From positions 13,406,606-13,470,605 of the forward strand of contig OX940865.1 in assembly GCA_954871525.1 (NCBI GenBank): a stretch of DNA of 64,000 bases, read 5' to 3'. A program made the position numbers and the translations under genes. This DNA is from Parietaria judaica (lineage: Eukaryota > Streptophyta > Magnoliopsida > Rosales > Urticaceae). Below, piece by piece: positions 5,788 through 51,213 of this stretch (position 1 is its first letter; the number at the start of each line of letters is the position of its first letter). A model generated the notes under the pieces. The model was not told the origin of the DNA and searched no databases. It saw only the letters and a program-made list of their open reading frames with translations.

Positions 5788-6389
5788 AAAAAATAATGAC
5801 AACTTATCGACGACGATAGAAACACTATTGGTACTTTCAGCGCTATTACATGACGTATTTTTACTTGTCTTGTAAAGTTTATACAATAGTTTAACTATGT
5901 CGTATACATTAGAGTATGTAATGGGAATTTTACGATCCACACCTGAGTATGCTATAAAATCAATTTTTATTTTGAAAATTTGTAAAATTACTTCTTTTTT
6001 TTTTTCCTGATATCAAGGTTAGTATCCTCAAATACGAATTTACTAGGGTTTACCGATTTAGTGTCTATTTAGTATCATTAATACTAAATAATTATAATCT
6101 ACGATCTTTACGTATTTACAAATTCACGTGAAAAGGACGTGGTGCTCTAAAAATTTCATTTCATTAAATTATACGCCAAGGGTACTTTGGTCAGATTATG
6201 AAAAAGGAGTATAGTTTTAAAATGTATCGTTTTTTGGGATATAAATCAAATTTTGGGTATATTTAAGTGTAGTTATTGAATTTTCCCTATATAATTTAAG
6301 AGATATTTTTAATATACTTACCGATTTTATATTTTGCAAAAATGTAGACACTTTCATATTTTGTAAAAAAAAATGCTCCATTCTGAAAA

Positions 6390-8040: not shown

Positions 8041-8322
8041 GGAAAATATTATAAAATAACCTTCAAAACACCATACATTTTTTATTACACTTCAAGTTTT
8101 CATAATTCTCAAAATAACTTTTTTAAATTTCATTTACCAAAATACCCCTGCAAATGTACATATCGCTTTCTGAAAAATGGACATATTGTGTCCGGAAAAA
8201 TGAACAAAATTAAGGGTATTTTGGTACATAAAATTTAAAAAAGTTGTTTTGAGAATTATGAAAATTTGAGTTGTAATAAAAAAAATATGTAGTGTTTTGA
8301 AGGTCATTTTATGAAGTTTCCC
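8041..8322. mobile_element. Short foldback MITE (~280 bp)
   Basis: The two halves are near-perfect inverted copies: ataaaataaccttcaaaaca on the left matches gttttgaaggtcattttat on the right, and pairing continues almost to the centre near 8180. No target duplication could be defined. Confidence 0.7.
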
Positions 8323-8661: not shown

Positions 8662-9237
8662 GGGTAAATTGCGGCTAATGTACTCAATGTTTGATATTTT
8701 GCGAATTATGTACCCAATATTTATTTTTGGTGACTAATGTACCGAATGTTTGATCTGTTAGATATTTTCGTGTTTTCCGTTAGTTGACCGTTAGAGAGTT
8801 GTCCTCCTCTACATGCACACGTTTCGTATTTTTGATATAACTCCCTCATTTTTCGTCAAAATTTTATGCACGACCTATGGTTAGAAAGATAAGAGAAAGA
8901 TCTAGAACTTTTATGTTTTACGTTTTGTAAAATAAGTTTTGCCAAACATATGAAATATGTGATGTTAAATAATCTTTCATATTTTTTGCATAACTTACTC
9001 ATATTTTGTCCAAAATTTATAAATAAACATCCTCTGGAAAGATACAAAAAATGAGTGAGTTATGTCAAAAATACAAAAAGTGTGCATATAGAGGAGGATA
9101 ACTCTCTAGCAGTCAACTAACGGAAAATACGAAAATATCTAACAGATCAAACATTGAGTACATTATTCACTAAAAATAAACATTGGGTACATAATCCGTA
9201 GAAGATCAAACATTGGATACATTAACCGTAGTTTACC
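8662..9237. mobile_element. MULE-type MITE (576 bp)
   Basis: Left end GGGTAAATTGCGGCTAATGT and right end acattaaccgtagtttacc are inverted copies; matching continues for about 160 bases, past ccgttagttgaccgttagag. The 10-bp flanks aaatttaaaa (8652-8661) and taatataaaa (9238-9247) agree at 8 of 10 positions, suggesting a decayed target duplication. Confidence 0.7.
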
Positions 9238-11264: not shown

Positions 11265-11268
<4 letters not shown>

Positions 11269-11742
11269 GGATTGACCACCATCGCCGGATTCGGGCTGAG
11301 AGTGCGGCAACTTCGGGCGTGGCTTCGGCGACCGTGGTCGCGGTTGCCGAGGAGGCGACCGTGGCCTCCGTCGCGGTCGCCCTCCATCGCGCCTCCTTCC
11401 TTCGTCACCCTCCGTCGCGGTCGCCCTCCGTCGCACCTCCTTCCTCGGTTGCTCTCCGTCGCGGTCGCTCTCCGTAGCGGCGCGATCATCCTTTCCACTC
11501 GATCGTAACTGTAAATTTATTTACAGTTTTGTGTAAATATGTTTACAGTTTTAAGGTAATATATTTGATTTTTTTGTAAATGATTTTACAATATTTTGAA
11601 GTGATAATTTCTCTTGGAGGGGCAATATTTTTGTAAATGAATTTACACGCTTTTTTAAATGTTTTTACACTTTTTTGGAGTTATTTTACACGAATTTGCA
11701 TTTGTGGATATGTATATGAAATTTCAAATCTTGTCAACAGAT

Positions 11743-11965
11743 TTGTAGATAGATTTACATAAAATGAGGGAAAACGAAAACCAAGTTTCGTAAATAGATT
11801 TACACAAAATGAGGCAAAACAAAAATCAAATTTTGTAAACAGATTTACATAAAATGAGGAAAAATGAAAACCAAGTTTTGTAAACAGATTTACATAAAAT
11901 GAGGCATAACGAAAACCAAGTTTCGTAAATAGATTTACATAAAATTAAGCAAACGAAAATCAATT
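11743..11965. repeat. ~45-bp tandem repeat, about five copies
   Basis: Units run gtaaatagatttac, then ataaaatgaggcaaaacg, then aaaaccaagttt. Each unit starts with a short palindrome (gtaaat...atttac). Diverged monomers extend leftward to about 11505 as recurring tgtaaat and tttacag words. Confidence 0.8.
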
Positions 11966-12673
11966 TTCATAAATAAAAATTCAAAATAAATATAGATTAA
12001 TAGGAAAAATAAATTTAAGATTTTAATCGTTACAAAAATATTAAACGTGATTTGTTAGAGCTAATAGAAAATAATACTAATTAATAGGGGAGATTTGACT
12101 TTAATTTATTTAGTTTGCTACATTTGAGGAAATTTTTATTTTTTTTATTTTAATTAAAAAACGAATTATAATTAAATGTGATTTAAAAATTAGAAGGGCA
12201 ATTTAGTCCATATTTTAATTTGTTGGTGGTTATGATTTCCATAATTAAAAATGGGCATATTTTTAAAACCTTGAGCCACAAATGGGCATTTGCCTCATTT
12301 ATCCTTGATTTTATATACGTTCAACCGTCGGATTAGAAGCAACAGATGGTGCAAATTTAATTAGTCAATGGATAAGGGCCAAAACGACACGTTGTTTCTA
12401 TCAACAATGTTATTTAAACTCCTTTATGTCGTTTTTGGCTAATGCAATTTTTTATATACATGCTTACAATTTTAGTAAATGAACTTTAGTTTTATTTTGT
12501 GACAGCATATTCGTATAACTTACGCATGCACTAGTGATGTTTCTCTTTTCTGTCTTTGGTTATCAAATTGACCTAAATTAAACTTGGAATATAATATGTT
12601 AATAAGCAAGTTGGCTTAAATTTAATTAAACTAGATTAGTATTATCTTTCATAATATATTAATAAAATAGAGG

Positions 12674-14742: not shown

Positions 14743-15272
14743 CGTCCGAAAGGACCATGTGATGTCCGAAAGGACTATGTGTTTGTCCGAAAGGACCATG
14801 TGATGTCCGAAAGGACCATGTGTTGTCCGAAGGGACCATGTGATGTCCGAAGGGACTATGTGTTTGTCCGAACGGACCATGTGATGTTCGAAAGGACTAT
14901 GTGCTGTCCTAAAGGACCATGTGATGTCCGAAGGGACTATGTGTTTGTCCGAAAGGACCATGTGATGTCCGAAGGGAGGGACTATGTGTTGTCCGAAAGG
15001 ACCATGTGATGTCCGAAGGGACTATGTTTTTGTCCGAAAGGACCATGTGATGTCCGAAAGGACTATGTGATGTTCGAAGGGACTATGTGTCTGTCCGAAA
15101 GGACCATGTGATGTCAGAGGGGACCATGTGATGTCCGAATGGACTATGTGTTTTTCCGAAAGGACCATGTGATGTCCGAAAGGACCATGTGATATCCGAA
15201 ATGACTATGTGTTTGTCCAAAAGGACCATGTGATGTCCAAAAGAACTATGTTATGTCCATAAAGGACCATGT
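14743..15272. repeat. 20-21 bp minisatellite, about 26 copies
   Basis: The units alternate between forms of gtccgaaaggaccatgtgat and gtccgaaaggactatgtgtt. Each contains the short inverted repeat gtcc-gaaa-ggac. Long open frames across the array on both strands are only translations of the repeat. Confidence 0.95.
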
Positions 15273-15534
15273 GCTACATACATCAAACCATCTTTATTTA
15301 TTAAGCTTCCACTTATTGAGGTCTTCGTAATGCAGGTTATATGAACTCCGATAATAATAGCCAACGTTGATTGAGGATTCCGGGCTGATGATCAAGCGCA
15401 TATGGGGCAATGTTGACTGTGGGATAAGTTTCTTTTCAAACTTCTGTTTTTGGGCTTTCATCGCCGTTTTGCTCAGAAGAACATTGTATATATATTTTGT
15501 TTACCTTAAAACCCAGATATGTATATATATGTAT

Positions 15535-22380: not shown

Positions 22381-25300
22381 TCAAGTGTTGCTGTTTGAGC
22401 TCGGCGCTAGCTCCGTCAGCATCGCGGCCACCTGAAGCATGTTCGGCCTCTTCGATGGGAAGTCGTCGACACACTGAAGCGTGATCTCGAGGTACCTGAG
22501 CATCTCCTTGACCTCCTCGGCCCCGTCGATGCCTTGCGTCACAAGTAACAACTCAGGGTCGATCACCTCCATTTGCTTCCCTTCTCGCACTTTGATCTTC
22601 ACCCACCCGACGAGGTTGGTGTCACCAAAGTCCTCCTTGTCGGTGGGGCGTCGCCCGGTTAGAATCTCCATGAGAATGACGCCGAACGAATATACGTCGC
22701 CTCTCGCTGTGCAGCGAAAGCTCTGGTAGTACTCGGGCGGGACGTAGCCAGGAGTTCCAGCGAGCGTGCTCACACTGAGATGCGTGTCGAGTGCGCTGAT
22801 CAGCCTCGCCATTCCGAAATCGGACACGCGCGCTTCCATGTCACGGTCGAGCAGCACGTTGCTCGACTTCATGTCGCGGTGGATGATGTGAGGGATGCAA
22901 TTATGGTGAAGGAAGCATAGCCCTTTCGCAGCTCCGCGTGCGATCTTCTTCCGTTCGTCCCATGTCATCCTATGGTCTCGAGCTTTCCCTCGCCCGTGGA
23001 GCATCTCTTCGAGGCTTCCGTGGTCCATGAATTCGTACACGAGGAGTCTCTCCTCGCCGACTTTGCAGTACCCGAGGAGAGGCACGAGGTTTCGGTACTT
23101 GATCTTGCCCAAAGTCTCCATCTCCGCCATGAACTCGCGGTCGCCTTGGCAACTAAGCCTGATGAGCTTCTTGATTGCGACGCTTGATCCGTCTCGGAGT
23201 TTCGCCTTAAACACCTCCCCGAAGCCGCCACAGCCGATGAGGCTCTCCGCTGAGAATCCGTTGGTGGCTTCGATGAGCTGCGAGAATTTCAGCTTCCGAA
23301 GCTGGCGCTGGAACGTGGCAACGTTGATGCTGAGAGGCTCTTTCTCTTTCTCGATCTTCCATGTCGTCGTCGTGTGTGCAGCTTGCAAGCTGTTGAGCAT
23401 CTTCACCTCCTCAGCCTCCCTCCGCCGCGCACGCATAGCGATGGCCCACACGATGATGATGCATATGGACGCAACGGAGATGAGGATGCCCATCACAATG
23501 CTGTTAGCCCACGACGCCGCTGGCGACTTTCTCTGTCCACTTCCAGCGACATCCCCGCTGGAGGGCTGGTATTTTCCATATTGGCATTCGGGGAGTGGGA
23601 CGCCACAGAGGCCAGGATTGTCTGCATACTGGCTCGCCGGAAGTGTGCTAAGCTGGCCTCTAGTTGGGATTTGCCCCGTCAGCTCGTTGTCGGAGAGGTC
23701 TATCTCCACCAAAAAGGACAAATTGGAGAAGGAATCGGGTATTTGGCCTTGTAGTCTGTTGTGCGAGGCATCAAAGACGCCTAAGTTCTTTAGCTTGCCG
23801 AGCGAGAAAGGAATCTCACCAGAGAGCTGATTATGAGCTAATTCGAGCACTTGCAAGGCGATCATGTCGCCGAATTCGTCCGGTATTTTTCCACGGAGCT
23901 GGTTGTAGGAGAGATCGAGGTACTCCAAGGTTTGGTACTGAGTAAACATGCTTAAGACGGCACCGGAGTAGAGCCTCGTGAATTGACAGCTCTTGAGTGT
24001 GGGCACAAGCAAGAGGCGATCAGGTCGGATTCCGGCAAATTCAAGCAGACCACCTGCTCCCCTGCAAGAGCTTCCCACATTGCGCACAAAAACGAGTGTG
24101 TTGCCAGAGAGAATCCCCGTCAGCGCCCGAGCCCCTGGCTGTCTCCCGAGATGAGCTGGGATTTCACCCGTCAGCTTGTTGCTATTCAGATCCAGCCAAA
24201 CTAAACTAGTGCAGTTTGCCAGCTCTCCCGGAATCTGTCCGCTGAAGCTGTTGTTTCCCAGCTGAAGCACTGCGAGCCTCGTCAAGAGCCCAAACTCCCT
24301 CGGGATTTCACCGCTGAGCTTGTTGCTTGTGAGAGAAATCCACTCGAGATTATTGCATTTGAACAGCTCGCTTGGGATTTCGCCGGTCAGCCCGTTGTTG
24401 TTGAGGATAAGGTCTTTAAGATTGCTGCATTTCCCCAACTCCGGTGGAATTCGACCCTCTAATCCGTTGAACCAAGCTATCAACTTCTCTAGATTCTCGA
24501 GCTCCCCAAGCTCAGCCGGGATTGAGCCATTCAGGTAATTCAAACTCAAATCAATTCTTTTGAGTTGACCACACTTGGATAGCTCTGCCGGGATAGCTCC
24601 AGTTATGAGATTGTCGGGCATTCGCAGCTCCTCAAGCAACGCAGCTCCGGGGCACAAGTCTCTTGGGACAGTTCCGGAGATCCGATTAGAGCTCAAGTCT
24701 ATGACCCTTATCTTCTTGCAAGAGGACATCGAAGAAGGGAATGGTCCAGAGATGATGTTGTTGCTGAGAAGCAGGGTCTCCAACGAGCCGAGATTCCGAA
24801 ACAGAGAATCCGGAAGCGGGCCCGATATGTTGTTGTTGGAAAGATCGAGCACTTGCAACCAAGAACATGACGAGAGCGACTCAGGAATCAGCCCCGCTAT
24901 GTTGTTGTTCGCCAGCTTGAGCTCCTGAAGCGAATTGCAGGCTCCTGAGAATGCGTCCGGGATCCAACCCGTGATCTGATTCTGCGAGAGATCCAACCGC
25001 TGAAGACTCTTGAGCCCTCCCAAGGCCTTGGGGATTTCCTCTGTGAGAGCGTTGATCGAAACATCGATGGATTGCAGGCTCGAGCAGTTGGAAAACCCCG
25101 CGGGGACCGAGCCCGTGAGGCGGTTCGAGGCGAGGTTGATGGTCAGCAAGGACTTGCAAGAACTCTCCATGATGTTCAAGGCGGAGATGGAGCCGGTGAT
25201 GTTGTTGTAAGAGAGGTCCAAAGACTGAAGCTTCGTGGCGCTCAACAAGAAATTCTTAGGGAAAACGCCGGTGACGTTGTTGAGAGCGAGGTTGACGAAA

Positions 25301-25719
25301 GCGAGTTCGGGGCAGTTCGAGAAGAGAGTGTCGGGCAGAGGACCGACGAGGCCTGCGAGAGAGAGGTCAAGCTGAGTGAGGGAAGAAGGAAGGTGGAGCA
25401 AAGAGGAGGAGTTTATAGAGAACGAATTGGAGGCCAGTCTCAGAAGGGACAACATGCTCAGAGAAGCCAAAGGCTGCAAAGACACGGCTCCTCCCAGGGC
25501 CGAGCCGCTGAGATCGAGCTCAGTCACTCTGCCGCCCGAAGAGCACGCAACGCCCTTCCAGCGGCACACGCTCTTCCCCGCTTGCCAGCTCGACAGAGCC
25601 CCGTTCGGGTCGCTTCCGACCGTCTTCTTGAAGGCGAGAAGGGCCTGCGCGTCTTGCTGGGCAGCCGAAAGCGGTATCGTTGAGAGCAACACAAGTGTTA
25701 AAGAGAGGATTCTCTCCAT
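22381..25719 (-). CDS. BRL2: BRI1-like 2 leucine-rich-repeat receptor kinase
   Basis: A single intronless frame of 1112 residues. In order: signal peptide (about 1-21); LRR N-cap with paired Cys ([12 protein letters not shown]); some 20 plant-type LRRs (LxGxIPxxLxx); the ~70-residue island domain (about 525-594, with [16 protein letters not shown] and LKSCQFTR), which marks the BRI1/BRL clade; four more LRRs; membrane span about 738-762; and a kinase with glycine loop GCGGFGEV (829-836), Lys850, HRD (947-949), DFG (967-969) and PEYYQSF. AtBRL2/VH1 is 1143 residues and also intronless. Family knowledge: BRL2 acts in provascular cells in vein patterning, and unlike BRI1, BRL1 and BRL3 it is thought not to bind brassinolide. 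The start follows a TATA-like box and is the only Met before the signal peptide. All catalytic residues are present; KYRNLV replaces the usual KHRNLV. BRI1 is a less likely identity. Confidence 0.95.
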
Positions 25720-28831: not shown

Positions 28832-29645
28832 TAATTTCCTTAATCTCCTCTTTTGATCGCGAATGTAGTAGCAATTTTGTAACAGTGAATTGAATTGAAT
28901 ATCATGGAGTGTTTGATATCAAGAAAGGAACAATGTCAATGGAAATGTTGAGTCGGAATCGGACGATCTGGAGCTGTCCGAGCCATTACCCGACTCCGAC
29001 GCTGGGTTCTCCTGTTGCGTGATTAGCCGTGGCATGTTGTTCAAATATTTTCGCGAGTTCTATGTGATTCCACTGATCGGGGTGAAGAGGTTGATGGAAA
29101 ACTGTGTTGTGGGATCACGCAACCGCGGATTCCGAGATGCTCCGACATATCCTAGAAGATATAAAGAATGATAGTCGAACCATTGGACATTTTCAGGGGG
29201 AAAATAGCACCAATGAATAAAATTAAGGGCAATTGCTGTTCTTAAGAATCCGGGATCGGATGCATACTACGGATAATGAAGTAGCATATATTATATAGAG
29301 CTTGCGGGGTTCAAAATCCTGACAAGCATCACCGGAAAATAAAATTTTGAGACACGATGAGTTACTTATGTTTTTTTTTTTTTTTTTTTGAATGGGATAA
29401 CTTACTTATGTTCAAACAGAATAAATTGTCTTTACTTCATGTTTTTGGAGAAAATTCAATTTTTAATCAAATTAATTAGAGATTGCAAAATTTACAATAT
29501 CTTTAAATTTTCTTTCTCGCTTGATTTTCTCTCAATTTATTTGTTTTTGTTTTTTTCGTCTCACTCTTATTAGAAAGACAAGGGCCCTACAAGTGGAACG
29601 TCAATTATTCTAAAGCCTCATGCTCGGACGTGTCAATTAGAATAA
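28832..29645. other. RPL29 3' region and intergenic DNA
   Basis: A moderately GC-rich patch (about 28950-29130) with short exon-like frames looks like a decayed gene piece but matches nothing I recognise. A poly-T run sits at 29372-29389. Confidence 0.4.
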
Positions 29646-30164
29646 GGGTTAATGACGGTAAAAATACTCAAAGTTTGGTCAAAGATCCTCTCGTGTGCTT
29701 AACGTTTAAAAATAATGGCAGAAATACTTAAAGTCGCATTTTTGGGGAGTTGATCACTCCATTCTTCTAACACAATTAACTTAGGGGTTAATTAGTTGTA
29801 TTAACTCCTAAGTTAACTGCGTTACGAGAAAATTTTTTTCTCCATTCTTGTCACGTAGACAATTTTTTTTGTTAAATGTAATTATTAGGGTTTAATTAGT
29901 TGTATTAAATAGTATTAATTAGGGGTTTAATTCGTTTGTTTTTCGTAAATGAGGCTGATGTGTGTTCATCTATGTGGCAAAAATTGTTATGTCAGCAACC
30001 CACGTTTGTCCACGTGGACAGAGTTAACGGTTAAGTTAATGGCGTTTCGAAAATAGAGTAGTCAACTCCTCAAATGTGTCTTTAGGTATTTTTGTCACTA
30101 TTTTAACTTTAAATACACGAGGAGTTCTTAACTAAACTTTGAGTATTTTCGCCATCATTAACCC
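29646..30164. mobile_element. MULE-type MITE (519 bp), second copy of the 2921 family
   Basis: Starts GGGTTAATGACGGTAAAAAT, identical to the element at 2921 for its first 20 bases, and ends in cgccatcattaaccc. The 10-bp direct repeat attagaataa flanks it exactly (29636-29645 and 30165-30174). The arms have diverged from each other and from copy 1. Confidence 0.85.
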
Positions 30165-31480
30165 ATTAGAATAATGGTTACATGAGTTTGAGTTTTCAAC
30201 TTTAATAAGTGGAACAATAAGTCAATTGGCTAAATTAGCATAGAACTAAAAATGACCGTAAAATAAGTTCAGTCTAGTTTACCTGTTTAACTAAGCGCGA
30301 TAACTTGATGATTACTTGACGATTTATCGTTTTTTTGAACTTCTCGATAAGTTTTCGTTGATAATTGTTATTGTTTAATACATTATTGTTTTTATATATA
30401 TCGTTTATCGAAAAAACGACAAGTGTGCTTATTGACAATATTTTAACTTTTCCTTGTAACTTTCAGTCTTTTTATTTTCTTCTTCGAAAACACTCCAACG
30501 TCTCTTTTCTCTACAAAATTGACTATTTCTTTCATAAATTTACAACATCATTCATAATTTTACAACATCATCGGTTCACAATTGATTTATCACCTTTTTT
30601 CAACAAAAAGTAGTTTTTTTTCTTTCTTTAAATTCATTGACCATACCACACTATGCCGCATCAAACCTTGCTTGGCCAGACAGCGGCAACATGCGACCAC
30701 ATGGTACAGGGCCGGGCCTGACTATAGGCGAGCAAAGCTGGCACCTCGAACTTCCAAATTTTTGGGGCTCTATTTTTATTAGATATTTTGTTAGGGAAAC
30801 TTCAGTTTGTATTCCCGGTATAGCATGTGTTTGCGGAAAAGTACCCGAGTTAATGATATTACAAAAATATGCCCCAGGTGAGTTAACTTAACCCATTGTA
30901 AAAAAAAAAAAAAAAAAATCGAAAAAAACCCTTATTCACTCTCTCTCTCTCTCTGATTTTGAAGAAAAGCTCCCGACCCCTGGTTTAGGGTTTCACGACG
31001 AAGCCAAGCTCCACCCTTTGCTCAGTTCCCCATTCCCATTCCCGCGACCAAGGCGTCCCCACCTCTGCCTCACCTACGCACGCTCTCTCTCGCTCTCCTC
31101 TCGCCGACCACGGCGCTGTCCGTCGCGCCGACCACGGAGCTGTCCCTTGCGCCGACCACTCTCTCTCTCGCTCCTTCTCGCCGACGAAACCCACGAGATA
31201 CCTCGTTGAAACAGGGGTGAACCGAGACGAGCGTGAAACTTTCCCTTTCTCGCTGCAATGAAAGACCTAAGGTATGTTCTTTTTTGGTTGATTTTCGCTC
31301 AGATTCGGTTCAGATATTTTGTTCCTAGGGTTTGATTTTAGGTTAGAAATTATGGTTTGATGTTATGGGTTAGTTCGGCATGATATTCGGGTTGATGTTT
31401 GGGCGATTTCTCTGTATTTTTCTGATTGAATTTGTATAGCGATATGTGGCTGACCATACTTGCTGCAATGTGTGGTACAG

Positions 31481-32094
31481 GCAGGAACGACGGACGAAAC
31501 TTGGTTCGATTCGATTCCCACGTTTGATTCTGATTGCGACGATGATTATCAAAGTGTTGCAGACGGTATTGTTTTCTTTTCCGCGTTAGATCTCGTTCAT
31601 GTTATCTTTTTCGGTTTGGCTTGTGATTGATTTTGAGCTTCCGTTGTCCACAGATGCTGCGTCTCTCCATGATTCTGAATGTACGTCGGTGTCAGGTAAT
31701 TCCGGACGCAACTCTGTTAGCGATGCTCTACCGAAATCCGATGGGTCTTTGATGAACGAAGCGAACAAGCCTGTGCTCTTAGACGAGATCTCTGTGGACG
31801 AGAACTCTGGAAAAGAGGAAGGGATTTTGGATAACTGTGGGATGATTCCAATGAACTGTTTGCCTTGTGAAATTTGTATTTGTGACATTTGTATTTGTGA
31901 TTTCAGTTTCCTCCAAGAGTCTTTTGCATCATCCATTAGCTGGTCGATACTGTTTGGACAATTTTGCAGCTCCATTGACAGAGATGTTCCGTAAAACCGC
32001 TTCTCTGATCGATACTGATGTTGCTTCGGGCGGTGCAACGGCGATGAATATGAGACCTTTGTTTGAGTCCCCGAGGCTGTGTTGTAGGGTTTAG
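31481..32094 (+). pseudogene. Captured fragment of a DUF1336 (EDR2-like family) gene
   Basis: Exon-like pieces 31481-31565 (AGTTDETWFDSIPTFDSD, then CDDDYQSVAD) and 31654-31872 (DDAASLHDSECTSVSG ... DENSGKEEGILDNCGMIP, then MNCLPC) join in frame across GT...AG borders. The blocks ETWFDSI, FDSDCDDDYQSV and LDNCGxxPxNCLPC are typical of the N-terminal part of plant DUF1336 proteins. A further piece (31900-32094) continues less clearly, and the C-terminal DUF1336 domain is absent. A GC-rich leader with CT repeats and a possible first exon lie at 30960-31272. It may still be transcribed from the TIR; I expect no function. Confidence 0.55.
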
Positions 32095-32399
32095 CATGAT
32101 TTCTGGTTTAGATAGTTCATTTTAGAGTTTATGTTTTATTGAGTGTATTAGTTTTTGAATGCTCACAAAGTGTTTGTTTATATGTCTTAATTAAATTCTG
32201 GTTTTTCTTGTATTTGTTTATGGACTTATGCTTGGACATATTTTCATTTTTTTTTTACTCAAGGACTAAACCATTTGTCTTCATTGATATTTTGTTTGTT
32301 TTTTAGACTTCAAGAAAATATATGGGTGATACGAAATTTAGTATGACATGATTTTTGAGAGTATTTTTTAGACTTTGAAAAAATATTAAGAATTTAAAT

Positions 32400-35310
32400 C
32401 ATGTGGTCTCATGGGTGAAACATTTTTTGCCTAAACATAAACAGTTTTGTTCTTCATTCCATAGGTTTTTTAGAACCGAAAATAAAATAAATTAACATAA
32501 ACATTTTTTGCCTAAACATAAAGAGTTTTTGCTAAACCGGAAATAAAATAAATCAACATAAACATTTTTTGCCTAAACATAAACTCTTTTTGTCTAAACA
32601 TAAACAATTTTTGCTAAACCGAAAATCAACATAAATACTTTTTGCCTAAACATAAACACTTTTTCCCTAACAATTTTTAAAACCGAAAATAAAATAAATC
32701 AACATAAACATTTTTTTGCCTAAACATAAACAATTTTTGCCTAAACATAAATAGTTTTTGCTAAACCGAAAATAAAATAAATCAACATAAACACTTTTTT
32801 CCTAAACATAAACAATTTTAGCTTAAACATAAACAGTTTTTGCTAAACCGAAAATCAACATAAATACTTTTTGCCAAAACATAAAACACTTTTTGCGTAA
32901 ACATAAACACTTTTTTAAACAGTTTTTTTAAACCGAAAATAAAATAAATCAACATAAAAACTTTTTGCCAAAACATAAACAATTTTTGCCTAAACATAAA
33001 TAGTTTTTGCTAAACCGAAAATAAAATAAATCAATATGAACACCTTTTGCCTAAACATAAACAGTTTTTGCCTAAACATAAACAATTTTTTTAAACAGTT
33101 TTTTAAAACCGAAAATAAAATAAATCAACATAAACAGTTTTTGCCTAAACATAAACAATTTTTGCAACAGTTTTTTTAAACCAAAAAATAAAATAAATCA
33201 ACATAAACATTTTTTGCCTAAACATATACACTTTTTTAAACAATTTTTTTAATCCAAAAATAAAATAAATCAACATAAACACTTTTTTGCCTAAACATAA
33301 ACAGTTTTTGCCTAAACATAAGCACTTTTTGCTATAGTTTTTTTTAAACCGAAAATAAAATAAATCCAATGAAACAAGTATGATAAACTTTTCTTGCAAA
33401 AAGTGTTTATGTTGATTTATTTTATTTTCGGTTTAGCAAAAAGTGTTTATTTTTAGGCAAAAACTGTTTATGTTTAAGCAAAAAGTGTTTATGTTGATTT
33501 ATTTTATTCTCGATATAGCAAAAACTATTTATGTTTAGGCAAAAATTGTTTATGTTTAGGAAAAAAAATGTTTATGTTCATTTATTTTATTTTCGGTTTA
33601 AAAAAACTGTTTAAAAAAGTGTTTATGTTTAGGCAAAAAGTGTTTATGTTAATTTATTTTATTTTTCGATTTTGGCAAAAACTGTTTATGTTTAGGCATA
33701 AAGTGTTTATGTTTAGGCATAAAGTGTTTATGTTTAGGCAAAAACTATTTATGTTCAGGCAAAAACTGTTTATGTTCTGGCAAAAACTGTTTATGTTTAG
33801 GCATAAAGTGTTTATGTTTAGGCATAAAGTGTTTATGTTTAGGCAAAAACTATTTATGTTTAGGCAAAAAGTGTTTATGTGGATTTATTTTATTTTCGGT
33901 TTAGCAAAAAGTATTTATGTTTAGGCAAAAATTGTTTATGTTTAGGCATAAAGTGTTTATGTTGATTTATTTTATTTTCGATTTAAAAAAAATGTTTGTG
34001 TTTAGGCAAAAACTGTTTATGTTTAGGCAAAAAGTGTTTATGATGATTTATTTTATTTTTGGTTTATCAAAAAGTATTTATGTTTAGGCAAAAAGTGTTT
34101 ATGTTTAGGCAAAAAGTGTTTATGTTCATTTATTTTATTTTCAGTTTTTTAAAAACTGTATAAAAAAGTGTTTATGTTTAGGCAAAATTTGTTTATCTTT
34201 AGACAACAAGTGTTTATGTTAATTTATTTTATTTTCGGATTAAAAAATTGTTTAAAAAAGTATTTAAGTTTAGGCAAAAACTGTTTAAAAAAGTATTTAT
34301 GTTTAGGCAAAAACTGTTTATGTTTAGGAAAAAAAGTGTTTATGTTGATTTATTTTATTTTTGGTTTAGCAAAAAGTATTTATGTTTAGGCAAAAACTGT
34401 TTATGTTGATTTATTTTATTTTTGGTTTAAAAAACTGTTTAAAAAGTGTTTATGTTTAGGCAAAAACTGTTTATGTTGATTTATTTTATATTCGGTTTAG
34501 CAACAATTATCTATGTTTAGGCAAAAACTGTTTATGTTTAGGCATAAAGTATTTATGTTGATTTATTTTATTTTCGGTTTAAAAAAACTGTTTAAAAAAG
34601 TGTTTATGTTTAGGCAAAAACTATTTATGTTTAGGCAAAAAAGTGTTTATGTTAATTTATTTTATTTTCAGATTAAAAAATTGTTTAAAAAAGTATTTAA
34701 GTTTAGGCAAAAACTGTTTAAAAAAGTATTTATGTTTAGGCAAAAACTGTTTAAGTTTAGGCAAAAAAGTGTTTATGTTGATTTATTTTATTTTTGGTTT
34801 AGCAAAAAGTATTTATGTTTAGGCAAAAACTGTTTATGTTGATTTATTTTATTTTTGGTTTAAAAAAACATTTTAAAAAGTGTTTATGTTTAGGCAAAAA
34901 CTGTTTATGTTGATTTATTTTTTATTCGGTTTAGCAACAATTATTTATGTTTGGGCAAAAACTGTTTATGTTTAGGCATAAAGTATTTATGTTGATTTAT
35001 TTTATTTTCGGTTTAAAAAAACTGTTTAAAAAAGTGTTTATGTTTAGGCAAAAACTATTTATGTTTAGGCAAAAAAGTGTTTATGTTTATTTATTTTATT
35101 TTCGGTTTAGCAAAAAGTATTTATATTTAGGCAAAAACTGTTTATGTTTAAGCAAAAAGTATTTATGTTGATTTATTTTATTTTCGGTTTAAAAAAGTTG
35201 AGTGTTTATGTTTAGGCAAAAACTGTTTATGTTTAGGCAAAAAGTGTTTATGTTGATTTAATTTATATTCGGTTTAGCAAAAAGTATTAATGTTTAGGCA
35301 AAATCAAAGA
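32400..35310. repeat. Large inverted minisatellite array (~2.9 kb)
   Basis: Left of about 33,390 the unit reads tttttgcctaaacataaaca with a recurring spacer aaaccgaaaataaaataaat; right of it the same unit reads in reverse, tgtttatgtttaggcaaaaa, with spacer atttattttattttcggttt. The array is therefore a giant imperfect palindrome with its centre near 33,370-33,400 and a longer right arm. Open frames through it (for example 33568-33924) are repeat translations rich in Phe, Lys and Met, not genes. Confidence 0.95.
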
Positions 35311-35710
35311 TAAAATAAATCAACATAATAAAAAAAATTATCAGGTTCACTAATGTACTTACAACAAAAACCAAAATGTAAAACACAAACACGAAAAGTG
35401 GTGATTAAAATCCATGAAGAGAGTGCGTCTTTTCATTAGGAAATTCTACACAAAATAAACAAACCTCTTTACTTACAACAAAAACCAAGGAGAGTTTGTT
35501 ACACAACCAAATGATAATTTAACCATTGCATAATATTAAGGAAAAGCAATTCAGTGGGATTATGATTACAATTCAGTGGGATTATGATTACAAGATATAA
35601 GTTGAGAAATTGAATAGGAAACTTTGTAGAAGAAGTCATTTCCAAGATAACACATGAACATTCCTTCATCCTAGGAAAGATGAACCTTAAAAAAATTCAT
35701 GGATTGGATG

Positions 35711-36263
35711 TTAGTTCTCGTCTTCTTCTTCTTCTTCGCCGTTCTTCTCCTTTTCTTGTTTGACTAAGCCGAGATCGCCCTCATTCCTTTGGTCAAGGAG
35801 ACATCTTCCTCGTCTTCTTCCTCGTCTTCTCCCACTTCCTCCGAGAAAGCATACCTGCATCTTGATAGCAACTAACACTAATGATTCAAACAAGATTCAA
35901 CAATATTAATCTCCCTTAATCTCCATCACCATAGCAAGATTCAAACAATGCCTATCTCTTTGAATTTTCTAACATTTCAAAATATACGTTTAAAGCTAAG
36001 CACTAACCAAAGTGAGTGTGATCAGTCACGACACAGCGTCCTTCCCAGTCGATGCTCCGTAGCTCGTCGACCTCGAACTCCTGAAGCCCTGCGGCAAAAC
36101 AGTTGAATCCATCCAAAACAAAATAAACAAAAAAATCCTCAGTCTCTCTCTGGTTAAGGCATTTGGTCGAGCAGTAGGGCTCCGTGACATACCGGAATAA
36201 CCAGAGCGACCTCTCTCGGAGGTGCGAGTGCAGGAGAAGAAAGACTCGTAACCCTCCGCCATG
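35711..36263 (-). pseudogene. Captured fragment of AP endonuclease 2 (APE2)
   Basis: Minus-strand exons 36263-36193 ([20 protein letters not shown] then GYSG) and 36088-36008 ([20 protein letters not shown] then VTDHTHF) join in frame across an intron with GT...AG borders. They match consecutive N-terminal blocks of plant APE2: [22 protein letters not shown] and GLEEFxxDELLxxDxEGRCVITDHGHF. The segment normally between them (VATFCRVKSA and following) is missing, and everything after HTHF is replaced by an unrelated acidic piece (about 35711-35855, YAFSEEVGEDEEEDEEDV). Intact APE2 repairs abasic sites; this relic lacks most of the catalytic domain. Confidence 0.7.
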
Positions 36264-36632
36264 GCCAGATCGGAGGTCAACTCAAATAAAACTCTAATCC
36301 CAAACAAATCTCAATGAACCAATATACAAAACCTAATCTCAAATCAATCCAACAAAAAATCTCATAATCAAACAAAAATAGACCTTAAATCGAACCCTAA
36401 TCTCAACAAACAAACCTGGGTTTGAACTTGGGTCGTTAGCGTTCATCGCTCACTACTTCGTTCCTCAGCCAACCAGCGAATTTCCGAGAAGGTTGCTGGG
36501 TCGACGAGCTTCACGTTGGCTGGAGACGAGCTTCGCCTGGGTCGCGTGGGTCCGACGAGCTTCGTCGTGCGAGGGCGTGGCCGTGTGGGGTTTCGTCGGA
36601 AGCTAGGAGTGAATGGGTCGCCGTGGGTCGGG

Positions 36633-36636
<4 letters not shown>

Positions 36637-36665
<29 letters not shown>
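36637..36665. repeat. (GA)n microsatellite
   Basis: About 14 GA units. On the minus strand this is a CT run about 370 bases upstream of the APE2 fragment, like the CT runs in plant leader sequences. Confidence 0.85.
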
Positions 36666-36667
<2 letters not shown>

Positions 36668-37488
36668 GAGGGAGAAGGGGGAAGGAACCCTAAAGCTGAG
36701 AAAGGGCTGATGTGAAAGAGAGGGCTGGATTTTGTTAACTCAAGCCTTGGGTTAAAATTGAGTTTGTGGCATATTTTTGTAATATCATTAACTCGGGTAT
36801 TTTTCCGCAAACACATGCTAAACCGGGAATACAAACTGAAGTTTCCCTTTTGTTATATACTTAATTTAAAATAAACAAATTTATTTTTGAAATATTTTAA
36901 AAGCCTCAGAATTTTACTTAGCCTATAACCCCGACTAAAAACGACAATGCTCAAAGGCCGGCCCTGGCATGGTGATAGTGTGGTGAAGGTGGCTTTGGGT
37001 GAGTCCTCTCTCCTCCCCTTGTCGATAAACCGGTTTATCCATCGGTAATCGTCGATAGCAACGATAAACCAAGTTTCTATAGTTTAATTCATAATCTCAC
37101 TACCAAATGACAGTTAACCGGCATAATGATAAGTTAAACATTGCCGGAAAGCAAGGGCGCGGACCTGCTGCACCTCAGTCTTTTTTTAATTAATTCCATT
37201 TCCAGCGAGAGAGACTCTCGCCCTTTCACTTCTCACCCTCACCCACTCCTGGACGCCTGTCTCTCCCTCCGCGACCTCGACCTCGTCGAAGCTAATCGAC
37301 GCGCCTCCGCAGCTCCTCCGTCGGATTCTGGGTCTGGGTATGACCTAAATGTCTGATCTTGATGTCGTTTTCTTCTCACTCAGACGCATGTCGTTGAAAA
37401 TATGATAACGTGGGCTCTTTCTTTGATTCAGTGTTCTTCCTCAGAACTTGCATCTCCTTCGGAATCGGAATCTCAGCGTGCAGGAGCC

Positions 37489-46084: not shown

Positions 46085-46453
46085 TAAATATTAGGGCTTA
46101 TTAGCAAAATACTCAATTATGGTCAAACTATTTTAAAAAATACTCAAAAGTTTGATATAATTAAAGATATACTCATTTAATTTTTTATGTACAACTATAC
46201 CCTCATCATCCTCATGCTCACTGTAGATCGCTCAACACGTCAAACAAATATACCATCGACTCCTTCCATTGTTGCTCAACCATGCCTTCGATCAATTCTA
46301 CAGATTTTGATTTTGATTTTGATTTCGATTCGATTTCGATCCCTCGCTTCTCCTTGTTCGATTGTTCTATCTCCGGTTTTCGGACGAGCATTTGATTCGA
46401 TACAACATAGGTTCGTCAATTTCGAATTCTCGCAACAGTCCGATCGATCGACT

Positions 46454-46959
46454 ATGGCGGAGACAGAGACAGGGACGAGTCTCGGAAACCCTAGCGATGT
46501 CGGAGGTAGGAAGCCGAAGGTGGTAGTGATAATGGGACCCGCGGGCTCGGGGAAGTCGAAGCTGGCCATTGATCTGGCTTCTCACTTCGCCGTGGAGGTC
46601 ATCAACGCCGACTCCATGCAGGTCTACAGAGGCCTCGGTCTCATCACAAATCCCTCGCTTCGTCTTCTTACATCGTCTCAATCTCAACTTCTCAGTCTGG
46701 AAGTTTTTCTTCTTTCAGGAGTTCCTCATCATCTTCTGGGGACTGTGAATCCCAACGTTGATTTCATGGCCAAGGAGTTCCGAGATTCCGCCATTCCTAT
46801 TCGTTTTTGGATTTTCGCTCTGCAATTTTCAATATGATTTTAGCATTTCATTCTCTGATTATTAGCGAATTGAATTTTCAGCTGATTGAGGATATCTTGT
46901 CTCGTGATTGCTTGTCAGTCATTGTTGGGGGTACACACTACTATATTCATGAAGGTTGA
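46454..46959 (+). pseudogene. 5' fragment of a tRNA dimethylallyltransferase (IPT2-like) gene
   Basis: Three exon remnants: about 46454-46651 (KPKVVVIMGPAGSGKSKLAI, HFAVEVINADSMQVYRGL, LITN), 46719-46798 (GVPHHLLGTVNPNVDF, AKEFRDSAIP) and 46882-46956 (LIEDILSRDCLSVIVGGTHY then YI). These are the ATP-binding P-loop (GPAGSGKS) and following blocks of IPT2-type enzymes, which add isopentenyl to A37 of tRNA. The first exon has lost the usual block before GVPHH together with its donor; the donor after SAIP reads AT instead of GT; and a TGA (46957-46959) closes the third piece. About two thirds of the protein, including the zinc-finger tail, is absent. Confidence 0.78.
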
Positions 46960-47349
46960 AACAGAGTTTGAATTTGTCTCTGTTTTGTTCTCTGTTTCGG
47001 TTTCTTACGCATAACACCGGGAAGACGCGCTGTCGTTCTCCGGTCACCGGAAATTCAACTGCAAAACTATAAACCAAAGTCAACATAGGAATTTTCTACC
47101 AAACTATAAACCAAACTCATTCTCACTGCTTATGCGTTAGTATTCTAATGTGCAATTCATGAATATTGCCATTGTTTATCTTTCAGTTTGGATTGTGTTT
47201 ATATGGACTTTTTTGTAAAATTATGTGTATTAATTCATTGCATGATCTTTCTTATCGTAGATATATATTGATTGATAGGCTGATATGAAGTGTGGATCTG
47301 CTGTGATTGGACTTTGTTTTCATTTGAATATGTGAGAATTCGAAACGAG

Positions 47350-49410
47350 CGCCGAATCAGAGTTACACAACGTAACTGGAGTTACACTTTTGTAACTGGA
47401 GTTACACTTTCGTGAACATTTTATACGAAAAATTCAAAAATCCAAAAACTTCCTTGAAAAATATGTATGAATTTATTAAGAATTCATGTTTTTACAAAAT
47501 TAAAAATATGTGTTTACAAGTGATTAAAATTACTTATTATATTTTTAATATGATTAAATCTCATAAATGTAAATAAAATAACACAATTGTAATCTGACAA
47601 ATGTGTATGAATTTATTAAGAATTCATGTTTTTACACAATTGTGAAAACTATAGTTACACTAATGTAACTCTCGTTACATAAATGTAACTACAGTTACAC
47701 TTGTGTCACAGGAGGTAAATAAATGTAACTACAATTACACTTGTGTAAGTGGAGTTACATAAGTGTAACTAAAGTTATTATTTCAAAATTGATATTTATA
47801 TAATAATTTTGAAAATTACAATTGTTACATGGTAATTTGGTAGTTACGAATCATATGTGTTTACAAGTGATTAAAATTACTTACTATACGCTTAATATGA
47901 TTAAATCTCGTAAATGTAAATATAAAAACACAATTGTAATCTGACAAATGTGTATGAATTTATTAAGAATTCATGTTTTTACACAATTGTGAAAACTATA
48001 GTCACACTTGTGTAACTTTCGTTACATAAATGTAACTACACTCACACTTGTGTAACTGGAGGTACATAAATGTAACTACAGTTACACTTGTGTAACTGGA
48101 GTTACATAAGTGTAACTATAGTTACACTTACGTAACTCTCGTTACATAAATGTAACTACAGTTACACTTGTGAAACAGGAGGTAAATAAATGTAACTACA
48201 GTTACACCTGTGTAACTGGAGTTACGTAAGTGTAACTGGAGTTACATAAGTGTAATTATAGTTACACTAATGTAACTCTCGTTACATAAATGTAAATACA
48301 GTTACACTTGTGTAACACGAGGTAAATAAATGTAACTACAATTACACTTGTGTAAGTGGAGTTACATAAGTGTAACTGGAGTTACATAAGTGTAACTATA
48401 GTTACACTAATGTCACTTTCGTTACATAAATGTAACTACAGTTACACTTGTGTAACAAGAGGTAAATAATGTATTTGAACGTGTCGGTTTCGTATTTGAA
48501 TATGAAGCCTAGTGACCCGGTTCTCTCCGTGCCGCTCGATCTCGAAGAGTACGTCGCCGATTTTATGTTCGTCGAATTCTCCGGCTTGACGCAAGGGAGC
48601 ACGGAGAGTACATTGGGTAACTGGGGTTACACTTATGTAACTAAAGTTACATTTGGGTAACTACAGTTACACTTATGTAACTAAAGTTACATTGTGGTAA
48701 CTACAGTTACACTTGGGTAACTGCAGTTACACTTATGTAACTAAAGTTACTAAAGTTAAATTTGGGTAACTACAGTTACACTTGGGTAACAAGAGTTACA
48801 CTTATGTAACTAAAGTTACATTTGGGTAAGTATAGTTACACTTGGGTAAATTCAGTTACACTTGTGTAACTAAAGTTACTAAAATTACATTTGGGTAACT
48901 ACAGTTACACTTATGTAACTGGAGTTACACTTATGTAACTGGAGTTACACTTATGTAACTAAAGTTACTAAAATTACATTTGGGTAACTACAATTACACT
49001 TGGGTAACTGCAGTTACGCTTATGTAACTAAAGTTACATTTGGGTAACCAAGTTACACTTGGGTAACAAGAGTTACACTTATGTAACTAAAGTTACAAAA
49101 ATTACATTTGGGTAACTACAGTTACACTTGGGTAACTGCTGTTACACTTACGTAACTAAAGTCACTAAAATTATATTTGGGTAACTGCAGTTACACTTAT
49201 GTAACTGGAGTTACACTTATGTAACTAAAGTTACACTTGGGTAACTGGAATTACATTTATATAACTGGAGTTACACTTATGTAACTAAAGTTACATTTGG
49301 GTAACAAGAGTTACACTTGGGTAACAAGAGTTACACTTATGTAACTAAAGTTACATTTGGGTAAGTACATTTACACTAATGTAACTTATGTAACTTTAGT
49401 TACATTAACG
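47350..49410. repeat. GTTAC/GTAAC minisatellite (~2 kb)
   Basis: Tandem variants of gttacacttgtgtaactgg and agttacataagtgtaact, with unit length near 18-20 bases. Because GTTAC and GTAAC alternate, most units are themselves near-palindromes. Monomer types change along the array: acttgtgtaac dominates before 48,470 and acttgggtaac or acttatgtaac after 48,610. It is interrupted by a unique GC-rich piece at 48469-48610. Confidence 0.95.
48469..48612 (+). other. Unidentified gene-like fragment inside the GTTAC array
   Basis: A GC-richer island with non-repeat codons reads YLNVSVSYLNMKPSDPVLSV then PLDLEEYVADFMFVEFSGL then TQGSTEST on the plus strand, with no stop. Base composition and third-position bias look like coding sequence, in contrast to the AT-rich repeats on both sides. 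I do not recognise the family. It may be a further captured exon. Confidence 0.45.
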
Positions 49411-49975
49411 TATTTTATGCATGTTACACCTTTTAGCCTGATTAGAAGAGGCTTGACAAGATAGGAAAATAATGTAATTTCAACCATTTACTCCATCATA
49501 AAGCAGTAACTTAATTATAAGGGTTATAATAAATAAGTCAGTAATGACAATTTAAAGAGTACATAATGTTGTTTCAGGTAAAAAAAAAAAGCATTCTTTA
49601 TGCCTTAGTTATAACGATCCTTATATATTTGGTTTTCTATAGTGTGTTAATAACACTACACCACTTGATGAGTCATTTAAACGGCCGTTGATGGAAAGAA
49701 AAGAACGACATATTATAGCATGTCATAAAGTAGCACAGCCAATTCATCGCAAGCAAGCTATAAAGACAATATCAAGCCATAAACATAAGGGAAAAAAATG
49801 GAGTTTTGACACAATTTCATCTGTAGAATAAAATCAATGCACATTGAAGTGGAAATCTTAAAATGGGAAGGATAATGATAATAGTGAAGAATAAGAATAT
49901 TGAAAAATAAAATAAAATAAATAAAATGTATTGAGTGATCATGGGAGCCATGAACTGAACCACCTGGGCTCCTCT

Positions 49976-50803
49976 TTAGCTCGCCACCATGACCGTCAAG
50001 TCAACATCGGCAGTCATTCTGTGCGGACCACGTGAAAGCGGCACGTGCACCACGAACTCCCGCTCGCTCTCGTTCCGCTCCTTCAGTTCCCGCTCTCGCC
50101 GCTCCTCCTCCACCACCTCCTCCTTTTCCTCATCGAACAGAACCTCCCGCGCCATGGCCGCCACTTCCCCGCTCTTCACCGCCCGCCTTGCCTCCACCCG
50201 AATCTCCTCCATCCTCTGCCACTCTCCTGCGGCCCTCATTCGCTCCTCCGCCGGCGCCTCCACGCGGTCCAGGACCCCGTCCTCGTCGTCGCGGTACCCG
50301 TAGTAGCTCGCGTCGATCCGCTTGTAGATGTCGTAGCGCGTGCGCCGCTTCCGCAACTCCAGCGGCTTCTCGAAGAGCTCGTGCACGCCGGGGAGCTTCT
50401 TCACCGCGCCAAAGTATCGGTAGCCCGCACCGCGGCCGCCTGGGTTGGGGACGTCGACGATGTTGCCGTCGAGGTCGGTCATCTTGGAGGAGTACTTGGC
50501 GTAGTTGGCGCCGCCGAGCTCGACGATGCGGCGCTCCCAGTGGGCCTTCTCGCGGATGAGCTTGTTGATCTCGTCGTTGAGGTCACAGAGGCAGTGCTCG
50601 CCGAGGCCCTCGTTCTGGATCTCGGCGACTTTGCGGCCGATCTCGCGGAGGATCTGCTGGCGCCACTTGTCGGCGTCGGTGAGGTCGCGGCACTCGGAGG
50701 CCAGGAAGGGGCGGCGCTCCTTGGGCTTCTTCTCCTCCTCCTCCTCCTTCATGGTGATGAAGCGGTTGAGCATGGACTGTACTTTCTCCTCGTTACGAGC
50801 CAT
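49976..50803 (-). CDS. ISY1: Pre-mRNA-splicing factor ISY1 homolog
   Basis: An intronless frame of 275 residues. It opens with the invariant MARNEEKVQSMLNRFITMKE, followed by KPKERRPFLASECRDLTDAD, KWRQQILREIGRKVAEIQNE, GLGEHCLCDLNDEINKLIRE, WERRIVELGG, PNPGGRGAGYRYFGAVKKLP and a Glu/Arg-rich coiled helix near 200-245. This is the ISY1 family (human 285, Arabidopsis about 300 residues). ISY1 belongs to the Prp19/NineTeen complex and helps remodel the catalytic spliceosome between the two splicing steps. The tail is slightly shorter than usual, but no block is missing and there is no frame break. It is far more GC-rich than its surroundings, which produces long antisense frames. It lies inside the TIR-bounded unit at 46094-51020, so it is either a captured full gene or a copy driven from the TIR. 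Confidence 0.92.
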   Translation of the reverse strand: MARNEEKVQSMLNRFITMKEEEEEKKPKERRPFLASECRDLTDADKWRQQILREIGRKVAEIQNEGLGEHCLCDLNDEINKLIREKAHWERRIVELGGANYAKYSSKMTDLDGNIVDVPNPGGRGAGYRYFGAVKKLPGVHELFEKPLELRKRRTRYDIYKRIDASYYGYRDDEDGVLDRVEAPAEERMRAAGEWQRMEEIRVEARRAVKSGEVAAMAREVLFDEEKEEVVEEERRERELKERNESEREFVVHVPLSRGPHRMTADVDLTVMVAS

Positions 50804-51213
50804 GGTCGCCGGACTGGTCGGAACTCCGGCGAAGGTTCTGGTTCGAAACCCTAACTAGGGAATGGGGGAGAGATTGGCGAAGAAGACGACTCTGTGAGTG
50901 GGCTTTTTGTGGGGGTATTTTTGGAAAATAAACTTTAAAATGAGTATGATTTGGATTAATTAAACCTTGAGTATTTTTTGAAATAGTTTGACTCTAATTG
51001 AGTATTTTGCTAATAAGCCCTAAATATTTTTGCCGTAGACTATCTTTTCTTCAAAACTACGTGTCGTTTCCTTTTAAAAAAACTATGTGTCGTTTTGATT
51101 TGCTCGATCCGACCGGCCAGACCCGGATCTATCCGACCCGGTTAGCGACGGGAAGCAAGGAGGAATTGTGCAGTTCGAGATTTGGGCAATATTTTTTTTC
51201 TGGTGCAAAAAAA

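What the first reader, a model, noticed from the sequence alone, without database searches (positions are those of the whole stretch)
46094..51020. An apparently intact ISY1 gene enclosed in a Pack-MULE-like unit
Inverted repeats of ~90-110 bp (first 26 bases identical) and a 9-bp flanking repeat with one mismatch bracket 4.9 kb containing a broken IPT gene, a GTTAC array and a full ISY1 frame. Pack-MULEs usually carry gene fragments; a complete, conserved spliceosome gene inside one would be either transposon-mediated duplication of an essential gene or a co-opted element. Both genes start near a TIR and read inward, so TIR sequences may supply the promoters.
Basis: partly seen in the sequence, partly recalled or inferred. 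Interest (0 to 1): 0.88.

Follow-up and report, generated by a model that had tools for sequence, protein, structure and literature searches.

The report
Transposon carrying a truncated ISY1 copy
This is a mobile DNA element that carries broken copies of several plant genes, including a splicing-factor gene that looks whole but lacks its last part; the plant keeps two normal copies of that gene elsewhere, and the element belongs to a family that mixes and matches gene pieces.

Summary
The element at 46094-51020 is real: terminal inverted repeats (TIRs), a 9-bp target repeat with one mismatch, and a duplicate of the flanking locus on contig C6 with the empty site and a single TAAATATTT. Its ISY1 gene is not intact. 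Two native 301-aa ISY1 genes (C5, C10) give exact capture limits, window 50037-50886: 83 bp of leader plus codons to HVPL, with the conserved last 42 residues replaced by unrelated sequence. The IPT piece is also a 5' fragment, without its first splice donor; a lectin-domain scrap is a third fragment. ISY1 pieces were found at 32 places (lower bound): 2 native, 29 beside a TIR of this family, 1 without; none of the 29 shows the whole coding sequence. The 16 put in a tree form one clade, so one capture is simplest. dN/dS is raised against the native pair. Verdict: ordinary Pack-MULE cargo in an unusual family. All 16 whole elements carry a GTTAC/GTAAC array, gene-bearing ends come in different pairings, and one pair has exchanged target duplications by an inversion.

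The parts
46085..46093 (.). left target-site duplication, TAAATATTA
   Evidence: the empty site on C6 reads TAAATATTT
46094..46205 (+). left terminal inverted repeat (IPT end)
   Evidence: 80.5% to the right TIR over 113 aligned bases; 100% to sister element L013 over 127
46421..46949 (+). captured 5' part of an isopentenyltransferase (IPT) gene with intron-like stretches, ending in an exon; a 43-bp deletion near 46636 removes the end of exon 1 and its splice donor
   Evidence: 86.7% to candidate native locus L048 649-1220, in whose 2.0 kb no TIR was found; deletion read from the two sequences; PF01745 above and PF01715 below cut-off; exon reading is inference
47360..48473 (.). left GTTAC/GTAAC array; the IPT-type end is colinear with the C7:32.79M element as far as 47335
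48474..48615 (+). fragment of a legume-lectin-domain gene between the two arrays
   Evidence: PF00139 E 1.6e-5, 25.0 bits, cut-off 26.3; 98.6% to L017
48616..49410 (.). right GTTAC/GTAAC array, about 20-bp palindromic units
   Evidence: with the lectin piece colinear with L017, 92% over 935
49415..50036 (-). filler of unknown origin joined to the ISY1 break, shared with L011, L012, L013 and L016; supplies the last 19 codons of the 275-aa frame
   Evidence: 97.1-99.4% in these four
50037..50886 (-). captured ISY1: 83 bp of leader plus codons to HVPL (native residue 259); the last 42 native residues are missing
   Evidence: 93.2% and 92.5% to native L009 and L010, homology ends here
49976..50803 (-). 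275-aa open frame (256 ISY1 residues plus 19 foreign codons)
50890..51020 (-). right terminal inverted repeat with sub-TIR (ISY1 end)
   Evidence: 97.7-98.5% in L011, L012, L013, L016, L017
51021..51029 (.). right target-site duplication, TAAATATTT

Best explanation
This is a non-autonomous Mutator-like (Pack-MULE type) element, 4927 bp, that inserted between two genes and made a 9-bp target duplication. Between its TIRs it carries partial copies of at least three host genes: the 5' part of an isopentenyltransferase gene, a scrap of a lectin-domain gene, and the leader plus most codons of ISY1 without its last 42. The parts are separated by arrays of ~20-bp GTTAC...GTAAC units. ISY1 DNA was most simply captured once, next to a TIR, in an ancestor of the family, and then spread, truncated and recombined to the 29 places seen. 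The ISY1 frame here is cargo, not a working second ISY1. Shown: TIRs, target duplication, empty site, capture limits, truncation, family copies. Inferred: a Mutator-type transposase acting in trans, capture by template switching during gap repair, and any transcription from the TIR.
For: Empty site on C6. Perfect 9-bp target duplications in 9 of 16 whole elements, 1 mismatch in 2 of 16 (window, L013), and in 2 of 16 (L011, L012) perfect once an inversion is undone. Native ISY1 at 2 places with no TIR in the 9.9 kb fetched around each; homology begins and ends sharply. A sister copy on C9 is 99.7% and 99.3% identical over the left 1257 and right 1607 bp, with a different target. The 16 element pieces put in a tree form one clade, UFBoot 97; the other 13 share the TIR-ISY1 junction. 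Omega 0.46-1.06 between the three lineages of truncated copies, against 0.12 for the native pair.
Against: No transposase with this TIR was identified: the genome-wide TIR search did not complete, so the link to Mutator rests on TIR length, 9-bp duplications and gene cargo. 3 of 16 elements (L020, L022, L027) have no good target duplication. The truncated frame is open in 5 of 5 copies with this 3' end. Omega stays below 1 in nearly all pairs: 0.34-0.66 with C8 or C19, 0.43 (window-C9) and 0.19 (C5a-C5b) in sister pairs, 0.19-0.43 natC5 against element copies. Native pair against window-C5a is only p 0.045 by Fisher, uncorrected, on pairs that share lineages.
Confidence: 0.94

Rival explanations
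1. A truncated but functional ISY1-like protein is made here from the TIR promoter, keeping the N-terminal part, and is kept by selection (co-option).
For: Frame open over 275 codons, and open in the C9, two C5 and C3 copies with the same 3' end; at columns fully conserved in the other sequences it changes only 2, no more than several intact genes; omega below 1.
Against: Lacks the conserved last 42 residues. It has the lowest median identity of 120 sequences and changes 8 of 160 columns conserved at >=95%, the most for any other of 119 being 6. Omega between lineages of truncated copies is above the native pair.
Confidence: 0.05
2. ISY1 stood here first and the two TIRs are independent MITE insertions around it.
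For: The TIRs are only 80.5% alike.
Against: The C6 copy of the locus lacks the whole 4.9 kb including ISY1 and reads through with a single target sequence. A sister on C9 carries the same unit between the same TIRs with another target duplication. Native ISY1 lies on C5 and C10 without TIRs.
Confidence: 0.01
3. A retrocopied (cDNA) ISY1 later enclosed by a transposon.
For: The ISY1 reading frame is uninterrupted, but so are both native genes.
Against: Native ISY1 is itself uninterrupted, so absence of introns says nothing. The piece is cut sharply at a TIR and the IPT piece keeps intron-like stretches, which speaks for capture at DNA level.
Confidence: 0.02

Closest known systems
Pack-MULEs (rice, tomato, Arabidopsis; passages of PMC8903248, abstract and passages of PMC3310237 read)
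   Same: Long TIRs, 9-bp target duplication, host-gene fragments, no transposase domain found; one captured fragment amplified in many copies, as for the tomato PM-ZIBP family (13 copies with tandem TIRs plus 1, PMC3310237). A preference for 5' gene ends is recalled.
   Different: All 16 whole elements share a large array of GTTAC/GTAAC units, and the gene-bearing ends occur in different pairings.
MULEs with multiple or tandem TIRs (PMC3310237, abstract and passages read)
   Same: L014 has an internal TIR copy and L029 a tandem TIR.
   Different: The window element has a single TIR at each end.
Foldback-like Mutator elements, Tm1 of root-knot nematodes (PMC3169594, abstract and passages read)
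   Same: Mutator-related, 9-bp target duplications, variable numbers of short tandem repeats in the element.
   Different: In Tm1 the repeats are part of the TIRs; here they are internal, away from the TIRs, and the elements carry plant gene pieces.
[quoted passage not shown]
   Same: Repetitive element sequence proposed as the place where template switching makes chimeric elements; microhomology at breakpoints.
   Different: That work is on animals; here something similar is inferred for a plant MULE family with an internal array.

Membership tests
Pack-MULE | long terminal inverted repeats at both ends | tested here: met
   (window); both TIRs found in 16 of 16 whole elements, which were chosen because both ends lay in the fetched DNA
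Pack-MULE | about 9-bp target-site duplication | tested here: met
   9 of 16 perfect, 2 of 16 one mismatch (window, L013), 2 of 16 exchanged by an inversion, 3 of 16 none; empty site
Pack-MULE | captured fragments of host genes | tested here: met
   ISY1 and IPT limits against native loci; lectin fragment by Pfam just under its cut-off
Pack-MULE | no transposase gene inside | tested here: met
   19 stop-to-stop frames of the element and its right edge against Pfam: no transposase; the remaining, mostly shorter frames were not scanned
Pack-MULE | TIR homologous to an autonomous Mutator-like element | not tested
   the genome-wide TIR search was sent 16 times and never answered
functional ISY1 gene | full coding sequence with conserved C-terminus | tested here: not met
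   last 42 of 301 native residues missing
functional ISY1 gene | purifying selection as in native copies | tested here: inconclusive
   omega 0.12 native pair; 0.46-1.06 between lineages of truncated copies, other element pairs 0.19-0.66; CpG bias and shared ancestry not modelled

The most novel reading that the evidence does not exclude
The internal GTTAC/GTAAC palindromic arrays act as exchange joints. They stall or break replication, and recombination or template switching through them lets members of this Pack-MULE family swap whole gene-carrying ends, so that a small set of captured 5' gene pieces (ISY1, IPT, lectin, BAHD acyltransferase and others) is recombined into new pairings and even into chimeric frames that then amplify. 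That would be a combinatorial exon-shuffling device built around a minisatellite.
Probability: 0.35. Interest if true: 0.72.

Novelty: new variant of a known kind. Interest (0 to 1): 0.45.

Why it matters
It corrects a tempting reading: a gene finder could call this an intact duplicate of an essential splicing factor. It also gives a well-resolved case, with native sources, an empty site, a sister copy and 29 ISY1-bearing places in one assembly, in which steps of gene capture, truncation, end-swapping and chimera formation by a MULE family can be read from sequence. How Pack-MULEs acquire genes is described as unsettled in PMC3310237 and PMC8277862 (passages and abstract start seen), and the shared internal arrays offer a testable place for the exchanges.

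Tried and rejected
Intact ISY1: rejected by the native genes and by tblastn of four plant C-terminal tails against the window. A spliced downstream last exon: no convincing tail match in the window. Two independent MITEs: rejected by the empty site and the C9 sister. Several independent ISY1 captures: the BAHD-ISY1 chimeras looked separate, but the tree puts the 16 element pieces used in one clade beside the native pair (UFBoot 97; other nodes 56-100; unrooted, only the two natives outside; the C3b row, L017, dropped), so one capture is simpler. The dN/dS comparison used 7 of the 20 copies with the shared 5' junction plus the 9 chimeras; L015's locus entered as C19 (L008), and L017, L028 and L029-L039 were left out; codons with gaps or stops were skipped. 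In the chimeras natC5-to-chimera omega is 0.10-0.22, as low as between natives, and chimera pairs range from 0.19 to 2.39 with 0 to 10 changes of each kind: this does not show relaxed constraint for them. Dating by dS was not attempted: the native pair (0.074) and element copies overlap and CpG decay is likely. Species: the neighbouring BRL2-like kinase is 81-83% to Parasponia and Morus, so Rosales, perhaps Urticaceae (inference); no closer name was found. Solved-structure search of the lectin piece gave only two unrelated weak hits (E 0.16-0.17). For the IPT piece the best solved hit is an adenylate IPT (3a8t, 1.9e-13), ahead of tRNA IPTs; that it is the tRNA type (plant IPT2-like) is recalled, not shown. 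Pfam on three frames of the second window element gave nothing.

Unanswered: the genome search replied 'busy' at 30 calls: 5, 6, 12, 20, 37, 38, 42, 44, 47, 49, 51, 54, 60, 62, 65, 69, 70, 75, 77, 80, 83, 89, 91, 93, 95, 97, 98, 103, 105, 107, and answered at 33, 58 and 85. The TIR copy number in the genome and the ISY1 DNA search were never obtained.

Full report
1. What is there. Inverted repeats 46094-46205 and 50910-51020 are 80.5% alike over 113 aligned bases (E 1.7e-22) and bracket 4927 bp. The flanks are TAAATATTA and TAAATATTT, a 9-bp repeat with one mismatch, or an 8-bp perfect repeat with one extra A at the left; the sister element L013 shows the same form with another target, ATTATTTTA / ATTATTTTT. 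Among 16 elements with both ends in the fetched DNA, 9 have a perfect 9-bp repeat, 2 have one mismatch (window, L013), 2 have repeats that match only crosswise and 3 have none (L020, L022, L027). Perfect 9-mers at other offsets between left and right 60-bp flanks occurred at 9 of 43248 positions.

2. The insertion. A second copy of the flanking locus lies on contig C6 (largest left piece 94% over 1.6 kb with smaller pieces at 84-96%, right pieces 84% and 95%). There the two flanks are contiguous...CAACATATAAATATTTTTACCG..., with one TAAATATTT and no element. It shows insertion after that duplication; precise excision from C6 is formally possible but not needed. The gene to the right looks like an F-box gene by eye; Pfam did not support a name for its first frame.

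3. ISY1 is not intact. PF06246 is matched to position 231 of 253. Against plant ISY1 proteins the frame stops matching after HVPL, and the end that closes with MLNI is absent. The genome was searched with PF06246: 37 matches, which I group into 32 places (counts are lower bounds by the tool's own note). Two are full-length and uninterrupted, C5:23895681 and C10:18856117, each 301 aa. DNA comparison with these two natives gives sharp limits: homology covers window 50037-50886 only, 93.2% and 92.5%, and no TIR was found in the 9.9 kb around either native gene. Thus 83 bp of leader plus codons to HVPL (native residue 259) were captured; the next 622 bp are of unknown origin and supply the last 19 codons and the stop. 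Third-position GC is 0.92-0.93 in the window copy and both natives, a GC-rich gene.

4. The other gene pieces. IPT: 46421-46949 is 86.7% to a candidate native locus on C4 (L048, 1 of 3 such places; no TIR in its 2.0 kb). The window copy keeps intron-like stretches and lacks 43 bp that include the end of exon 1 and its splice donor. So this capture was of DNA, not of cDNA. Lectin: 48474-48615 matches PF00139 at E 1.6e-5, 25.0 bits, just under the cut-off of 26.3. No transposase was seen in the 19 frames scanned.

5. The family. Of the 32 ISY1 places, 2 are native, 29 lie beside a TIR of this family and 1 (L018, C10:18.87M) has no TIR in the 9.9 kb fetched. In 20 of the 29 the ISY1 leader starts at the same junction within 3 bp, 83-86 bp before the ATG (window, L011-L017, L028-L039). 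Their 3' ends differ: codon ~258 in window, C9, two C5 copies and C3; codon ~293 of 301 in C8 and C19; codon ~118 in L017; shorter or internally deleted in L028-L039. None of the 29 shows the whole coding sequence (for L029-L039 only 2.4 kb each was fetched). The other 9 (L019-L027) carry a chimeric frame, 283-406 codons from stop to stop, that joins the start of a BAHD acyltransferase (PF02458, E 6e-17, scanned in L021) to ISY1 codons 113-283. A tree of the two natives and 16 of the 29 element pieces puts the element pieces in one clade (UFBoot 97); the 13 not in the tree share the TIR-ISY1 junction. One capture, then truncation and reuse, is the simplest history. The root is not fixed, since only the two natives stand outside.

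6. How it changes. All 16 whole elements have a GTTAC/GTAAC array (18-75 palindromic units). In the 11 elements mapped, TIRs and array are constant while the ends vary: ISY1 with lectin and IPT (window, L013); ISY1 with lectin and another 5' piece (L011, L012, L016, L017; it resembles tubulin-folding cofactor D, recalled, no call); ISY1 with a flavodoxin-like 5' piece (L014; FQR1/WrbA-like, recalled, no call); the BAHD-ISY1 chimera with a related far end, 92% to that of L014 over 322 bp (L019, L020, L021, L026). The ISY1 end of the window is 99% to L017 over 576 bp, but their far ends share only the TIR. The lectin and right array of the window are colinear with L017 (92% over 935 bp), while its IPT end is colinear with the C7:32.79M element (89% over 1299 bp) as far as 47335, where the left array begins. 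The window element is thus best read as a recombinant of two family members with the joint at or in the left array (inference). In L017 ISY1 passes straight into the array, with a shared CCCAA at the junction. On C5, L011 and L012 are inverted to each other 8 kb apart and their flanking 9-mers match only crosswise: the left flank of one is the reverse complement of the left flank of the other, and likewise the right flanks; no other pair among the 16 does so. An inversion by recombination inside the two elements explains this exactly.

7. Selection. Nonsynonymous/synonymous counts: native pair 6/14 (omega 0.12); window-C5a 20/12 (0.46); window-C3 14/5 (0.79); C5b-C3 15/4 (1.06); C8-C19 22/9 (0.66). 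Fisher tests against the native pair give p 0.045, 0.010, 0.004 and 0.009, uncorrected, on four pairs that I chose and that share lineages. Lower values also occur: 0.34-0.66 in pairs with C8 or C19, 0.43 for window-C9, 0.19 for C5a-C5b, 0.19-0.43 for natC5 against element copies, and 0.10-0.22 for natC5 against the chimeras. Against 119 homologues (P0001 dropped because it is a repeat-containing partial record) the window frame has the lowest median identity, 81.9%, and departs at 8 of 160 columns conserved at >=95%, where the most for any other is 6; at columns fully conserved among the others it departs at 2, no more than several others. The picture is relaxed constraint on fairly young copies; weak constraint is not excluded.

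8. Mechanism and place among known things. It meets the structural definition of a Pack-MULE: TIRs, 9-bp duplications, host-gene fragments, no transposase found. The untested feature is the link to an autonomous element, because the TIR search never ran. TIR promoters driving Pack-MULE cargo are described in PMC3310237 (passages read), so inward transcription is plausible here but was not tested. Template switching at fragile repetitive element sequence is proposed for animal Pack-TIRs in PMC8277862 (passages read); the arrays here would be a plant counterpart if the exchange-joint idea holds. In seven literature searches on Pack-MULEs and on MULEs with tandem repeats I saw no description of this array-bearing family (listings of open-licence papers only).

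Noticed in passing
window 30794-36847: A second TIR-bounded unit: 84-bp inverted repeats 96% alike, 8-bp flanking repeat TTTTGTTA, enclosing 21-bp arrays that switch strand at about 33.4 kb (19 forward motifs, then 39 reverse); same general plan as the ISY1 element, different TIR and array. Three of its frames had no Pfam match.
   Followed up: partly
window 14744-15273: Array of 20-bp units GTCCGAAAGGACCATGTGAT, most a small perfect hairpin; 19 GTCC-GGAC units.
   Followed up: no
window 11265-11975: GC-rich coding-like stretch followed by an array with 8 GTAAA...TTTAC units; by eye weak inverted flanks near 10985 and 12250, perhaps a third, decayed unit of the same plan.
   Followed up: no
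L019-L027 (9 loci): Chimeric frame BAHD acyltransferase N-terminus plus ISY1 codons 113-283, 283-406 codons stop to stop; omega against natC5 0.10-0.22, chimera pairs 0.19-2.39 on few changes.
   Followed up: partly
L011 and L012 (C5:8572984-8576630 and 8584658-8588479): Two inverted elements with exchanged target duplications, a clean footprint of an inversion.
   Followed up: yes
L018 (C10:18868534): ISY1 fragment about 12 kb from the native C10 gene, with no TIR found in 9.9 kb; perhaps a local duplication or a decayed element.
   Followed up: no
L014 7277; L029 1533-1595: An internal TIR copy in L014 and a tandem TIR in L029, like the multiple-TIR MULEs of tomato.
   Followed up: no
window 2918-3389 and 29643-30164: Two copies (73%) of a palindromic MITE-like repeat; further foldback-like repeats at 8041-8321, 8663-9237 and 6380-6944.
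   Followed up: no
window 22381-25719: Open frame of 1112 aa for a BRI1-like-2 receptor kinase, 81-83% to Parasponia and Morus; places the genome in Rosales.
   Followed up: partly
window 46210-46450: The leader between left TIR and IPT piece has relatives at 74-91% at 21 other listed places that lack the IPT part; perhaps a sub-terminal part of a larger MULE group.
   Followed up: no
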